DNA from: Kitasatospora xanthocidica
GTDB taxonomy: Bacteria > Actinomycetota > Actinomycetes > Streptomycetales > Streptomycetaceae
DNA: 64,000 nt
Assembly: GCF_014656195.1 (NCBI RefSeq)
Contig: NZ_BNBY01000004.1
Coordinates: 1-64,000, forward strand
Direction: 5' to 3'
Positions 11,040 through 44,522 of the stretch are shown in pieces. A program made the translations under genes and the position numbers. The notes beneath the pieces were generated by a model, which was given only the letters and a program-made list of their open reading frames with translations, was not told the origin of the DNA and searched no databases. How positions within the stretch are numbered: position 1 is the first letter of the stretch; every line of letters begins with the position of its first letter.

Positions 11040-12551
11040 ATGGGTGCGGACGTACAGGCGGAAGCGCGGGTGGGAGCACAGATGGAGGAGCGGGCGGAGG
11101 CGATGACGGGAGTGGTGGGCGGGGTCGCCTGGCGGGTGGGCCGGGCCTGTGTGGACGGCGTGCGCGCCTGGTACGCGGTGACGCTGGCCGTGACGGGCCT
11201 GATCTCGCTGCTGGCCGGGCCGCTGCTGCTGGCCGCCGCGCTGTTCGGCCCGGAGGATGCCGGGCCGTTCGGGCCCGGCGGTCCGTTCTTCCTCGCGGTG
11301 CCGCTGGGGCCGGTCGCGCTCTGGGCACTTTGCTGGGCCACCGGGGGCGGCGGCCGGGCGGTCGGGGCCGCCCTGTTCGCCCCGGGCTCGCTCGCGGTGA
11401 TGGCGACGCACCTCTACGGGGGCGCCGCGCCCGGCGGCCGCTCGGTCTCGCTCTGGCTGGCGCCCGCGCTGCTGGTGCTCGGGCTGTTCGGCGCGCGCTG
11501 GATCGCGACGGAGAGCAGGCGGACGGTCGGGAAGTGGAGCGGACGGCCGGTCCCGGTGCCGTACCGGCGCCCGCCCGGCGCGGCCGGCCCCTGGCAGCGG
11601 CTGCGGGCCGGCGGCTGGCTGACCGACCCGGCGACCTGGCGGGACGCCGCCTGGGCCCTGCTCTCCGGCGCCGCGGTGCTGCTCACCGCCGCGGTCGTCC
11701 TGTTCACCCCGATCGCCCTGGAGGTCTTCGGCCGGCACGGGCCGTTCTTCCCGCTGGCCATCGTCTACGGGCTGGGGCTGTGCGCCGCCCCGGCGGCCGC
11801 CCTGTGGGCCGCCCCACCGGTCCTGCGGATCCACGAGCGGGCCGTCCGGTCCCTGCTCGGGCCCTCCCGGCAGGCCCGGCTCGCCCACCAGGTCAGCCAC
11901 CTGGCCCGCACCAGGGCGGACACCATCGACGCCGGGGCCGCCGAGCTGCGCCGGATCGAGCGGGACCTGCACGACGGGGCGCAGGCCCGGCTGGTCGCCC
12001 TGGGCATGCTGCTGACCGTGGCCGAGCAGTTGAAGGACGACCCGGACGCCCTGGGCCCGCTGCTGGCCGAGGCCCGGACGTCCTCGGTGAAGGCGCTCGG
12101 CGAGCTGCGGGACCTGGTCCGCGGCATCCACCCCCCGGTGCTCGCCGACCGCGGGCTGGCCGACGCGGTGCAGGCGACCGCGCTGGACCTCCCGCTGCCG
12201 GTCACCTTCACCGGCGTCCTGCCGGGCCGGGTGCCCGCGCCGGTGGAGTCGGCGGCCTACTTCGCGGTCACCGAGCTGCTGGCCAACGTGGTGAAGCACG
12301 CGGGTGCCTCGCACGTGTGGATCGAGATAGGGCACAGTGACGGGCTGTTGCGGATATCGGTCACCGATGACGGGCGCGGCGGCGCCGACCCGTCCCGGGG
12401 TACCGGCCTCAGCGGAACCGAACGCAGATTGGCCGCCTTCGACGGGGTGCTGGCGATCAGCAGCCCGCCCGGTGGACCGACCATCGTGAACCTGGAGATC
12501 CCGTGCGCGTTGTCATCGCCGAAGACCTCTTCCTCCTCCGGGACGGCCTGA
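11040..12551 (+). CDS. Sensor histidine kinase (HisKA_3/NarL-type)
   Basis: 503 residues from ATG 11040, preceded by GAGGGGG. About five hydrophobic segments fill residues 40-260 (for example VTLAVTGLISLLAGPLLLAAALF and LLSGAAVLLTAAVVLFTPIAL), then the dimerisation/phosphoacceptor motif RDLHDGAQARLVALGM with His311, the X-box, and an HATPase_c domain (TELLANVVKHA, DDGRGGADP, GTGLSGTERR). The 3' end overlaps the regulator start by 49 bp in another frame, so translation is coupled. An in-frame ATG near 11082 is an alternative start. Partner of the regulator at 12503 and probably controls the divergent exporter. Confidence 0.93.
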   Translation: MGADVQAEARVGAQMEERAEAMTGVVGGVAWRVGRACVDGVRAWYAVTLAVTGLISLLAGPLLLAAALFGPEDAGPFGPGGPFFLAVPLGPVALWALCWATGGGGRAVGAALFAPGSLAVMATHLYGGAAPGGRSVSLWLAPALLVLGLFGARWIATESRRTVGKWSGRPVPVPYRRPPGAAGPWQRLRAGGWLTDPATWRDAAWALLSGAAVLLTAAVVLFTPIALEVFGRHGPFFPLAIVYGLGLCAAPAAALWAAPPVLRIHERAVRSLLGPSRQARLAHQVSHLARTRADTIDAGAAELRRIERDLHDGAQARLVALGMLLTVAEQLKDDPDALGPLLAEARTSSVKALGELRDLVRGIHPPVLADRGLADAVQATALDLPLPVTFTGVLPGRVPAPVESAAYFAVTELLANVVKHAGASHVWIEIGHSDGLLRISVTDDGRGGADPSRGTGLSGTERRLAAFDGVLAISSPPGGPTIVNLEIPCALSSPKTSSSSGTA

Positions 12552-41904: not shown

Positions 41905-42648
41905 TCAGCGCCCGGTGGGCAGGTTGGCTCCGCCGGTGCAGTCGAGGACCACGCCCGTCACGAAGGTGTTGGCCGCGAGCATGTGGATCGCCCGGGCGAC
42001 GTCCTCGGCGCGACCGACCCGGCCGACCGGGGTGGTCGCGGCGAGGCCCTCGAAGAGCGCGGTGCGCTGCTCCGCCGGGACGCGGCCCCACCACGGGGTG
42101 TCGATGACACCGGGCGAGACGGCGTTGACCCGCAGCGGGGCGAGCTCGACGGCCAGCGGCGGGACCATCGCCTCCAGCGCGCCGTTGATGGCGGCCAGCC
42201 CGGCGGTGCCGGGGATGGCGGCACGGGCGGAGGCCGCGGTGATCAGGGTGACCGAACCGTCCGCGCGCAGGTGCGGCAGGGCCGCCTGCAGGACGCGGAC
42301 CTGCGGCCAGAACTTGGCGTCGAAGCCGGTCGCGAGATCGGCCAGGTCGAGCCCGGCGAACGGGCCGCTGCCGGCCGCGCCGCTGACCGCGACGACCAGG
42401 TGGTCCACGGCGCCCTCCGCCGCGAAGAAGGCGGCGACCGCGGCGGGGTCGGCCGCGTCCAGCTGCCGGCCGGTGACCTTGCCGCCGATCCGGGCGACGG
42501 CCGCGTCCAGCCGCTCACGGTCACGGCCGGTGACCACGACCTCGGCCCCGTCGGCCGCGAAGGCGGTGGCGGCCGCCTCACCGATGCCCGAGCTGCCGCC
42601 CATCACGACGACGCGCTGACCGGCGAAGAGGTTTGACGCAGTGCTCAT
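41905..42648 (-). CDS. SDR-family oxidoreductase, catalytic YxxxK not conserved
   Basis: 247 residues from ATG 42648. Nucleotide-binding GGSSGIGEA (residues 17-25), VVVTGRDRERLD, AVSGAAG and INGALEAMVPPLAVELAPLRVNAVSPGVIDTPWW give a classical SDR scaffold, but the position of the catalytic Tyr and Lys reads GLAAINGALEAM, lacking both. A C-terminal LDCTGGANLP is normal. Either an SDR with altered chemistry or a binding protein. Divergent from, and probably repressed by, the TetR regulator across a 104-bp gap with clear inverted repeats. Confidence 0.9.
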   Translation of the reverse strand: MSTASNLFAGQRVVVMGGSSGIGEAAATAFAADGAEVVVTGRDRERLDAAVARIGGKVTGRQLDAADPAAVAAFFAAEGAVDHLVVAVSGAAGSGPFAGLDLADLATGFDAKFWPQVRVLQAALPHLRADGSVTLITAASARAAIPGTAGLAAINGALEAMVPPLAVELAPLRVNAVSPGVIDTPWWGRVPAEQRTALFEGLAATTPVGRVGRAEDVARAIHMLAANTFVTGVVLDCTGGANLPTGR

Positions 42649-42664
42649 GGTGGGGCCTTTCAGC

Positions 42665-42720
42665 TTGTCGAGACTGTTGGTTCCGGCAATGATGTTTGTC
42701 GAGACTGCTAGTCTTGTCAA
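42665..42720 (+). promoter_or_regulatory. TetR operators between SDR and regulator
   Basis: TTGTCGAGACTG occurs at 42665-42676 and 42696-42707. The second copy is the left half of a near-perfect 25-bp palindrome (42696-42720): TTGTCGAGACT, GCT, AGTCTTGTCAA, two mismatches. It is 33 bp before the regulator ATG; the first copy is close to the SDR start, so one protein could control both genes. Confidence 0.75.
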
Positions 42721-42752
42721 GTGTCGGCAAGGGAACGGGAGAGAGGGACACC

Positions 42753-43397
42753 ATGAGCGGAACCGAACCCCAGGCAGCGCAGGGGCACGACGACCCGGCG
42801 GCCGAGCAGGCCCCTCCCGGCCGCCCGCACACCGGACGCCGCCGCAACGAGGCCGCCCACCGGGCGATCCTCGACGCCGCCCTGAACCTGCTCGCCGACT
42901 CCGACGGCACACCCGTCACCATCGACGCCATCGCCCGCACCGCCGGCGTCGGCAAACAGACCGTCTACCGGTGGTGGCCCTCCAAGGGCGCCGTCCTGCT
43001 CGACGCCCTCACCGACCGCGCCGACCAGGACGTCCGGGGCCCCGACACCGGCACCCTGCGCACCGACCTGCACGCCTTCGTCGCCACCACCTTCGACGCC
43101 GCCCAGCGCAGCACCACCGCCTCCGCACTGCGCACCCTTGCCCGCGAGGCCGCCCGCGACCCGCACCTCGCCGAACTCATGCAGACCTTCACCGCGACCC
43201 GCCGCACCGCCCTGCGCGAACTCCTCTCCCGCGGCCGCGAGCGCGGAGAACTCGCCGACGACGCCGACCTGGACCTCATCGTGGACCAGGTCTACGGGGT
43301 GTTCTGGTACCGCTTCCTCCTCGGCCACGCACCCCTCGACCCGGGCGCGGCAGAGCGGCTCACCGATGCGCTGATCACCGGGAACGGGAGCGCATAG
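42753..43397 (+). CDS. TetR-family transcriptional regulator
   Basis: 214 residues from ATG 42753. HTH region AAHRAILDAALNLLADSDGTPVTIDAIARTAGVGKQTVYRWWPSKGAVLLDAL (residues 34-86), then a TetR_C-like ligand domain (LHAFVATTFDAAQRSTTASALRTLAREAARDPHLAELMQTF; WYRFLLGHAPLDP). The N-terminal 30 residues are unstructured Pro/Gly/Ala-rich. Adjacent divergent SDR is the expected target. Palindrome A1 of the following array begins 17 bp after the stop and could terminate this transcript. Confidence 0.93.
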   Translation: MSGTEPQAAQGHDDPAAEQAPPGRPHTGRRRNEAAHRAILDAALNLLADSDGTPVTIDAIARTAGVGKQTVYRWWPSKGAVLLDALTDRADQDVRGPDTGTLRTDLHAFVATTFDAAQRSTTASALRTLAREAARDPHLAELMQTFTATRRTALRELLSRGRERGELADDADLDLIVDQVYGVFWYRFLLGHAPLDPGAAERLTDALITGNGSA

Positions 43398-43413
43398 GGG
43401 GCGGCTGGATCGT

Positions 43414-43966
43414 CGCGCAGGAAGTCGGCCCGGCCGACTTCCTGCGCGAGCCCCCCGGACAGGGACGGTCAGGGAAATATGCCGACCGGTCTACATACCC
43501 GACCGCCGGCGAGCCTCCAGCGGCTTCAGCCACACCACGCGCACCGGAAGTCGGCCAGACCGACTTCTCGCGCACGCACCCTCCCGCCTCGCATCTCATC
43601 GCGACGAATATGACGGTCGGTCTACATATTTGCTCGGAGAAGCAGCGCCCTGCGCACAGGAAGTCGACCGGGTCGACTTCCTGTGCAACTGCCCAGCCCA
43701 CCACAGGACCCCGCCCGCAGAATATGACGACCGGTCTACATATCAACCCCACCCACGGCAGCACCCCGGCACGAAAAGTCGGCCCGGCCGACTTCTCGCG
43801 CGCGGCGCCCTGCGGCGGCCCCCGAGGGAATATGACGGTCGGTCTACATATTCGTCCGGGGAAGCAGCGCCCGTGCACAGGGAGTCGACCGAGTCGACTT
43901 CTCGCGCGAGCACTCTGCGGCAAGACGGGCGCGGCCCATAAGGAATATGACGGTCGGTCTACATAC
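43414..43966. repeat. Array of five palindromes alternating with five 23-bp boxes
   Basis: Palindromes (A): A1 43414-43448, arms CGCGCAGGAAGTCGGCC and its exact complement, one central base; A2 43547-43567; A3 43654-43686, arms GCACAGGAAGTCGACC, exact; A4 about 43772-43798, core AAGTCGGCC/GGCCGACTT; A5 43883-43899, AGTCGAC/GTCGACT. Boxes (B), each 23 bp, starting AATATG and ending GGTCTACATA plus T or C: 43476, 43607, 43721, 43829 and 43944. B1 and B3 contain GACCGGTC, B2, B4 and B5 contain GGTCGGTC. Spacing of like elements is 106-131 bp. Changes between A1 and A3 are compensated on both arms. Linkers also share pieces (AAGCAGCGCCC before A3 and A5). No gene recognised within; function unknown. 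Confidence 0.9.
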
Positions 43967-44522
43967 TTGCCCCGCGCGGGGCTGCCTCCGATAGGGCGGG
44001 GCGGCGACGGCGGCGGTAGTAGGCGAGGGCCAGGGCGAGGACGATGGGGCCCCAGAGCATGGCGGGTGCGGTGCAGGTCCGGGCTAGGAGCTGCCACCAG
44101 ACGGTGGTGTAGGGGAGTTCTTCGAAGCCGAGTACGCCGAGCCAGGCCAGTGGCATCGGGTCGAAGAGGGCGACGAGGGTCAGTCCGCCCAGGACCGCCG
44201 GGATGACGGCCGCGAGCGGCGGGACCCGCCGGCCGCGCAGGCCGGGTACCCAGGACGGGAACACCTCGCCCCACCCGCTGACCAGCCCCATGGTGAGCAG
44301 CGCCAGGGCCTCGGTCAGCACGCTCAGGCCGATCACGTACGGGGTGGCCCACCAGTCGTAGGCCGGGGCGAGGGGGTCGATCAACCCCATCCGGTAGTCC
44401 ACCGCGAAGGGCAGCCGCCACAGGCAGTGGGGCAGCAGGACGAAGGGCAGGGCCTTGGCGAGGCGCAGCGCCCAGCGGGGTACGGGGCGTTCGGTGTCAC
44501 CGACCGGAGTGTTCTTCAGCAT
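43959..44522 (-). CDS. Small integral membrane protein
   Basis: 187 residues from ATG 44522. Four to five TM segments: RLAKALPFVLLPHCLWRLPFAV, WATPYVIGLSVLTEALALLTMGLV, VPPLAAVIPAVLGGLTLVALF and TCTAPAMLWGPIVLALALAYY. Similar proteins occur throughout Streptomyces without assigned function. Its last three codons and TAG stop (43959-43961) are provided by box B5 of the palindrome array, so the original 3' end may have been replaced. The following 164 bp (44523-44686) towards the deformylase contain nothing recognised. Confidence 0.8.
   Translation of the reverse strand: MLKNTPVGDTERPVPRWALRLAKALPFVLLPHCLWRLPFAVDYRMGLIDPLAPAYDWWATPYVIGLSVLTEALALLTMGLVSGWGEVFPSWVPGLRGRRVPPLAAVIPAVLGGLTLVALFDPMPLAWLGVLGFEELPYTTVWWQLLARTCTAPAMLWGPIVLALALAYYRRRRRPALSEAAPRGASM

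What the first reader, a model, noticed from the sequence alone, without database searches (positions are those of the whole stretch)
43414..43966. Five-unit array of covarying palindromes and a conserved 23-bp box, unlike any annotated element
Seen: five palindromes sharing AAGTCG/CGACTT alternate with five 23-bp boxes (AATATG ... GGTCTACATA) every 106-131 bp, in about 550 bp with no gene. Two palindromes are perfect over 33-35 bp. Between A1 and A3 substitutions occur in pairs (GCGCAGG/CCTGCGC to GCACAGG/CCTGTGC; GTCGGCC/GGCCGAC to GTCGACC/GGTCGAC), the mark of selection on pairing. Boxes come in two flavours, GACCGGTC (B1, B3) and GGTCGGTC (B2, B4, B5). Inference: tandem small RNA genes with box B as promoter or 5' element and A as hairpin; or a binding-site array for a dimeric protein (nucleoid, segregation, or phage-related); or a dispersed repeat family amplified here.
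Basis: partly seen in the sequence, partly recalled or inferred. Interest (0 to 1): 0.85.

Follow-up and report, generated by a model that had tools for sequence, protein, structure and literature searches.

The report
Repressor-operator and hairpin array between genes
A stretch between two genes in a Streptomyces-like soil bacterium is a tandem array that alternates a gene-end hairpin with copies of the likely binding site of a TetR-type repressor; such arrays recur around the genome and were not found in relatives that lack the repressor gene, which suggests that a local gene switch was turned into a chromosome-wide element.

Summary
The array is real: five palindromes (A) alternate with five boxes (B) across the 561-bp gap between two convergent genes; in relative G069 those genes lie 3 bp apart. 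B is an operator: a B-like site stands about 28 bp before the start of all 18 LmrA/YxaF-type TetR genes printed (one degenerate), and all 5 exact B matches outside Streptomyces/Kitasatospora records lie beside a PF21993 TetR gene. The own genome holds at least 33 B boxes. A is a separate hairpin family: 90 copies, 3 of 88 inside genes, nearer the stop codon in 21 of 21 single-A tandem gaps, with covarying arms. B arrays occur in 7 of 7 A-rich genomes with this TetR and 0 of 11 without; a two-gene tree rejects one clade for either group, suggesting joint loss twice. Probably TetR binds the arrays; their task, a ligand-releasable transcription boundary or a repressor sponge, is inferred. Closest known: IHF-binding BIME/RIB mosaics, but two REP-defining features fail. 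Small RNA genes are not supported.

The parts
43413..43449 (.). A1, perfect 37-bp palindrome
   Evidence: RNA fold -35.5 kcal/mol, z -7.0
43476..43499 (+). B1, operator-type box (GACCGGTC flavour)
43538..43576 (.). A2, imperfect palindrome, core 43548-43566
   Evidence: RNA fold -20.9 kcal/mol, z -4.4
43607..43630 (+). B2, operator-type box (GGTCGGTC flavour)
43654..43686 (.). A3, perfect 33-bp palindrome
   Evidence: RNA fold -28.3 kcal/mol, z -5.6
43721..43744 (+). B3, operator-type box (GACCGGTC flavour)
43769..43801 (.). A4, palindrome, core 43776-43794
   Evidence: RNA fold -23.9 kcal/mol, z -2.2, 3 of 200 shuffles fold as well
43829..43852 (+). B4, operator-type box (GGTCGGTC flavour)
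43872..43910 (.). A5, imperfect palindrome, core 43882-43900 (one mismatch to AAGTCG)
   Evidence: RNA fold -24.7 kcal/mol, z -3.6
43944..43967 (+). B5, operator-type box (GGTCGGTC flavour); overlaps and stops the convergent gene
42753..43397 (+). left flanking gene, a TetR of another type (TetR_C_11); not the regulator tied to box B
43959..44522 (-). right flanking gene, convergent; no Pfam or NCBIfam match; C-terminus runs into B5

Best explanation
The array is a composite, tandemly grown intergenic repeat of two independent parts. Box B is a copy of the operator of an LmrA/YxaF-type TetR repressor whose own gene lies elsewhere in the genome (contig C33), with an SDR gene beside it. Palindrome A is a gene-end hairpin family. 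Shown: B is footprinted at the repressor's own promoter, and genome-wide B arrays track the repressor gene; A sits at stop codons and its arms covary. Inferred: TetR dimers bind the B boxes, so that hairpin and bound protein together form a boundary that stops transcription running between neighbouring, often convergent, genes, and that opens when the repressor's ligand releases it. Rough split of my belief: B is this TetR's operator 0.9; the arrays bind the TetR in the cell 0.75; boundary or roadblock as the main task 0.35; sponge 0.25.
For: A B-like site lies at -28/-29 of the TetR start in 18 of 18 genes printed (G090's is degenerate); by the stricter scan, in 17 of 19 copies. Second sites lie before the SDR gene. 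Outside records labelled Streptomyces or Kitasatospora, 5 of 5 exact B matches in the genome collection lie 13-201 bp from a TetR gene, and all 5 match PF21993, LmrA/YxaF-like, over its cut-off, as does the own TetR, which also matches YxaF structure 1sgm. B counts follow TetR: 7 of 7 A-rich genomes with it, 0 of 11 without it. Neither group is one clade, p-AU 3.7e-5 and 3.6e-5. Eleven loci of TetR-less genomes, 47.5 kb, keep A in seven of them but hold no B at up to 5 mismatches, against 30 sites in eight array loci, 40.5 kb. A: 3 of 88 inside genes at 81% coding; 26 of 55 A-bearing gaps convergent against 19 of 150 others; nearer the stop codon in 21 of 21 single-A tandem gaps. QdoR (YxaF) is released from its operators by quercetin (PMC8481877, passages).
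Against: No binding or transcription data. Several arrays are not convergent: of eight B-bearing sites in the own genome (operon apart) four are convergent, three tandem and one divergent. No T-tract follows A. In the arrays the outer stem of A is degenerate. B also forms clusters about 30 bp apart without A in G123 and G073 (L062, L061). The tree rests on two genes; on rpoB alone the inner branches are poorly supported. TetR absence rests on one search at E up to 1e-45 that scored at most 84 of 81-142 first-look candidates per genome.
Confidence: 0.6

Rival explanations
1. Repressor sponge. The arrays titrate the TetR, so that the autoregulated TetR-SDR operon responds later and more sharply to its ligand; position at gene ends is only the tolerated place.
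For: 31 array boxes against 2 operon boxes in the own genome. Array boxes are more symmetric in their outer six pairs than the promoter operator (mean 4.4 of 6 in 31 own boxes against 1.7 in 7 operators), so they may bind at least as well; five operators before the SDR gene reach 3.6 (one of three such sites in G123 was used). B is absent where TetR was not found.
Against: Does not explain why B alternates with a gene-end hairpin (159 A-B neighbours against 8 A-A and 19 B-B, in loci chosen for B) or why arrays persist in the same gaps of several species. The symmetry comparison is partly biased, because the search pattern contains the symmetric half.
Confidence: 0.25
2. Neutral or selfish mosaic. 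A spreads and grows in tandem at gene ends; B was captured from the operon and amplified as a passenger, without function.
For: Arrays grow by block duplication (L024 repeats a two-unit block). A is all-or-nothing among relatives (of 39 genus genomes 18 have 17-120 copies, 21 have none). A-only arrays have a similar period, mostly 80-110 bp.
Against: The joint absence of TetR and B, with A kept, in two separate lineages is not expected of a passenger.
Confidence: 0.2
3. Extended regulon. The arrays are operators that bring further neighbouring promoters under the TetR.
For: Three tandem and one divergent site lie upstream of a gene.
Against: Four of eight own sites, the window's among them, are convergent gaps without an obvious promoter to control.
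Confidence: 0.15
4. Tandem small RNA genes with B as promoter and A as terminator hairpin.
For: A folds strongly as RNA; A1 and A3 were folded on both strands.
Against: B is an operator of a repressor. One weak promoter-like match, no T-tract terminator; Rfam gave one match, E 0.44, 20.6 bits against a threshold of 86.
Confidence: 0.04

Closest known systems
BIME/RIB mosaics of enterobacteria (REP palindromes with an IHF site between them)
   Same: Extragenic palindromes at gene ends, in mosaics with a site for a DNA-binding protein between them. [quoted passage not shown] RIBs lie at the 3' end of transcription units (PMC2817692, passages and one reference title).
   Different: The protein site is the operator of a ligand-type TetR repressor; the palindrome lacks a conserved foot tetranucleotide and does not track a Y1 transposase.
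Operators of LmrA/YxaF (QdoR) repressors
   Same: Related regulator (PF21993, structure 1sgm) with an operator by its own gene and by a neighbouring gene; QdoR likewise has one operator at its own gene and two at qdoI (PMC8481877, passages).
   Different: Here the operator is copied to more than 30 sites, mostly in arrays outside the operon. The letters of the Bacillus subtilis operators were not seen.
SlmA, a TetR-family protein with many dispersed sites (recalled)
   Same: TetR-fold protein binding many chromosomal sites.
   Different: Other subfamily; no tandem arrays with hairpins. Recalled, not tested.
Laboratory tet-operator arrays (recalled)
   Same: Tandem TetR-type operators with spacers.
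   Different: These are man-made; the present arrays are natural.

Membership tests
REP elements / BIME (RAYT-linked) | Many dispersed extragenic palindromes per genome | tested here: met
   90 exact copies of A in the own genome; 3 of 88 in fetched loci lie inside called genes
REP elements / BIME (RAYT-linked) | Conserved GTAG/GTGG-type tetranucleotide at the foot of the stem (as in the REP table of PMC2817692) | tested here: not met
   No conserved base at -8 to -16 or past +7 in 63 copies. Anywhere in the 16-nt flank, which includes the stem: GTAG in 6 (left) and 2 (right), GTGG in 19 and 16, GGAG in 18 and 17 of 63
REP elements / BIME (RAYT-linked) | Partner Y1 (RAYT) transposase in the genome | tested here: not met
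   PF01797 found in 15 of 39 genus genomes; 9 of the 18 A-rich ones have none (G061, G065, G069, G073, G096, G099, G114, G123, G131) and 6 of the 21 A-less ones have it
LmrA/YxaF operator | Site next to an LmrA/YxaF-type TetR gene | tested here: met
   18 of 18 genes; 5 of 5 exact matches outside Streptomyces/Kitasatospora records
LmrA/YxaF operator | Bound by the repressor and released by ligand | not testable with these tools
   needs gel shift or ChIP
Intrinsic terminator | G+C-rich hairpin after stop codons | tested here: met
Intrinsic terminator | Run of T after the stem | tested here: not met
   0 in window 43300-44100; no T run in the 16 nt 3' of the core in the base counts of 63 A copies
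Rfam RNA family | Match over the gathering score | tested here: not met
   window 43000-44500: one match, mir-3136, 20.6 bits against 86

The most novel reading that the evidence does not exclude
A one-operon, ligand-responsive TetR repressor has been recruited as a chromosome-wide architectural or boundary protein: its operator was amplified into natural operator arrays, alternating with gene-end hairpins at centre distances that cluster near five helical turns, so that one small molecule could open or close dozens of transcription boundaries at once.
Probability: 0.3. Interest if true: 0.85.

Novelty: new variant of a known kind. Interest (0 to 1): 0.62.

Why it matters
It would be a natural case in which the binding site of a local repressor became a dispersed repeat, and it offers a clean comparison: sister genomes with hairpin arrays but without the repressor and its sites. 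That makes a vague question, whether extragenic repeats that carry protein sites do anything, directly testable by deleting one gene. I saw no such element in the ten paper searches made (listings only, and passages of three papers); subscription journals are mostly not in that library.

Tried and rejected
Small RNA genes: rejected, see rivals. REP/RAYT element: Y1 transposase does not track A, no foot tetranucleotide. Phage origin: no exact B match in viral contigs, no blastn match of the array to phages. Plasmids: one weak match of 36 bp on a Streptomyces viridifaciens plasmid, not followed. Regulation by the flanking TetR (42753-43397): it is of another subfamily. A second box type, C (TCTACnCGCGTAGAT), between A copies on contig C30 (L104): 5 copies in one array; three other places in the genome match with one mismatch, none beside a gene that I could read as TetR, so no regulator could be named. 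Helical phasing of A-B distances: nominal signal only (R 0.29 and 0.33 at 10.5 bp), and the units are not independent. Does A replace an older hairpin? The 70 nt after the SDR gene were folded where they were held: A stands there in G000, G053, G099 and G069; nine A-less genomes show no A, but three of these (G045, G049, G105) fold to -24.7 to -33.8 kcal/mol by other structure, and the end of the gene in G041 is doubtful, so this is undecided. Of 11 loci orthologous to the window's left flank only G000 and G053 hold the array in the fetched stretch; G099 has part of it further on (L075), G140 a lone A; G065, G114, G077, G069, G134, G061 and G049 have none there, mostly with other neighbours, G069 with the same two genes. 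The B genome G134 thus lacks the window's array. A script for the first tree took wrong frames and the next failed; corrected.

Full report
Observation. Window 43413-43967 holds five palindromes A (AAGTCG-N7-CGACTT core; A5 has one mismatch) and five boxes B (AATATGnnGACCGGTCTACATA), strictly alternating, A spaced 126, 113, 115, 106 and B 131, 114, 108, 115 bp. B: 5 matches, 0.00 expected; A: 6 matches with up to 3 mismatches, one of them outside the array, 0.10 expected. By a codon-usage gene caller that I wrote, the gap is 43398-43958, between a TetR_C_11 gene and a convergent gene without a family; B5 gives the latter its stop codon. In G069 the two orthologous genes lie 3 bp apart, so the array is extra DNA relative to G069. 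Of the 11 loci found with the left flanking gene (34 genomes searched) G053 also holds five A and five B, with another gene on the far side; G140 has a lone A beside the convergent gene; the remaining eight show no array in the fetched stretch, G099 having two A and two B beside the convergent gene further on (L075).

Other copies. In the own genome B boxes lie at seven further places with A (L024-L029, L095): 31 boxes in all with the window's five, plus two at the repressor operon, 33 (up to 5 mismatches in 24, in fetched loci only, so at least 33). Of these eight sites four are convergent, three tandem, one divergent. Arrays sit between the same genes in several species, judged by the starts of the flanking proteins: L024 with L067 and L072, L026 with L065 and L069, L068 with L074, L060 with L064. 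L024 repeats a two-unit block, and an A-only array holds a 119-nt pair 91% alike: growth by tandem duplication.

What B is. Next to an LmrA/YxaF-type TetR gene and an SDR gene (Pfam NAD_binding_4) on C33 there is a B box just before the TetR start and another before the SDR gene. One search printed the 35 nt before the start of 18 TetR genes (all's but the second G073 copy): all 18 hold a B-like site at -28/-29, G090's degenerate. By the stricter scan (up to 7 mismatches to the full 24-base palindrome) 17 of 19 copies have it; G090 and G049 show only the second site. In the collection of about 85,000 species the exact pattern AWTATGNNGACCGGTCTACANA hits 16 stretches: 11 in six records labelled Streptomyces or Kitasatospora, and 5 elsewhere (Shouchella clausii, a Gemmatimonadetes MAG, Citreicoccus inhibens, two Nocardiopsis). 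All 5 lie 13-201 bp from a TetR gene, and all 5 proteins match PF21993 over its cut-off (E 1e-22 to 2.7e-29). The own TetR matches PF21993 (E 6.5e-29) and YxaF structure 1sgm (E 2.2e-30). The relative QdoR has an operator at its own gene and two at qdoI and lets go on quercetin (PMC8481877, passages); the letters of those operators were not seen.

B follows the repressor. In 150 family genomes, 12 have B with up to 2 mismatches (near-palindromes count on both strands): G000 36, G053 24, G069 12, G073 62, G099 24, G123 18, G134 4, and five genomes with 1; three of those five are of the genus, and in all five (L030, L031, L032, L036, L039) the box stands beside the TetR-SDR pair. In the 39 genomes of the genus, 18 have 17-120 exact copies of A and 21 have none; 18 of 39 have the TetR at E up to 1e-45 (at most 84 first-look candidates scored per genome). 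A-rich with TetR: 7 of 7 have B arrays. A-rich without TetR: 0 of 11. A-less with TetR: 11 genomes, B 0 or 1. The rest, 10 genomes: 0. On rpoB (40 genomes) 14 A-rich genomes form one clade (99/96) and four others (G027, G131, G145, G149) stand apart. On rpoB+carB (20 genomes, those four not included) one clade of the seven B genomes is rejected (p-AU 3.7e-5), and one clade of the seven A-only genomes too (3.6e-5). The simplest history is that TetR and B were lost together twice, in G065 and in the ancestor of six genomes, while A stayed; repeated gain of B is not excluded, and two genes may not tell the species tree. Eleven loci from TetR-less genomes, 47.5 kb, hold no B at up to 5 mismatches, while eight array loci of TetR-bearing G053 and G099, 40.5 kb, hold 30 sites (59 when both strands are counted).

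What A is. 90 exact copies in the own genome; the core is invariant by the search itself. Among 88 exact copies in fetched own loci 3 lie inside called genes at 81% coding; 26 of 55 gaps with A are convergent against 19 of 150 other gaps of 40 bp or more; in the 21 tandem gaps with a single A it is nearer to the stop codon in 21. Outer 7-nt arms pair perfectly in 32 of 61 copies outside the main A-B arrays (63 copies, two not counted, which I take to be those with unread bases) against 4.7 re-dealt, but in 6 of 25 within A-B arrays against 2.4 (max 7). RNA folding on the plus strand gives -20.9 to -35.5 kcal/mol for the five copies of the window; A4 is the weakest against shuffles (z -2.2); another copy reaches -51.4. 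No T run. Outside the genus A is at background: at most 2 per genome in the family sample and 3 in one genome (G227) of the class sample. A-only arrays exist in the own genome and in relatives, mostly 80-110 bp apart (range 79-169 in L101 and L104), and B clusters about 30 bp apart without A in G123 and G073 (L062, L061).

Mechanism. Shown: B is the operator of this TetR by footprint, and B arrays were found only where it was found. Inferred: binding in the cell, and the task. I put first a boundary made of a gene-end hairpin and a bound dimer, because A is tied to stop codons, half of the own sites are convergent, and A-B centre distances are regular (medians 57.0 and 54.5 bp, many at 50-56). 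The sponge is close behind and the two are not exclusive. A passive mosaic remains possible.

Known or new. The design resembles BIME/RIB mosaics with IHF sites (PMC2817692, passages), but two defining features of REPs were tested and not met. I therefore call it a new variant of a known kind, not a REP.

Noticed in passing
L104:2243-2816 (own genome C30:40.2-40.8k): An A array that alternates with a different palindromic box, TCTACnCGCGTAGAT, five copies; possibly the operator of another regulator. One of three other near matches (L199) lies in a divergent gap.
   Followed up: partly
L104 and L186 (own genome C30; G140): By the starts of the flanking proteins the A-only array of L186 in G140 lies in the same gap as the A-C array of L104.
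   Followed up: no
L061:2323-2404 and 11094-11175 (G073): Three B boxes in a row lie inside a long reading frame that looks like a polyketide synthase (by eye), twice; the first run was checked to be in frame.
   Followed up: partly
L189:1916-2141 (G145): Four A copies inside a called gene, the last three 81 bp (27 codons) apart.
   Followed up: no
window 43959-43967: B5 supplies the stop codon of the convergent gene; the C-terminus differs from the G069 ortholog.
   Followed up: yes
G087 (L129): The TetR match is reported with one TGA inside.
   Followed up: no
plasmid CP090842.1:93904-93939: Weak A-like match on a Streptomyces viridifaciens plasmid, two places in the record.
   Followed up: no
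window 41905-43397: A gene that reads like an SDR stands divergently to the TetR_C_11 gene left of the array; the pair is side by side in all 11 loci (SDR by eye, not searched).
   Followed up: no
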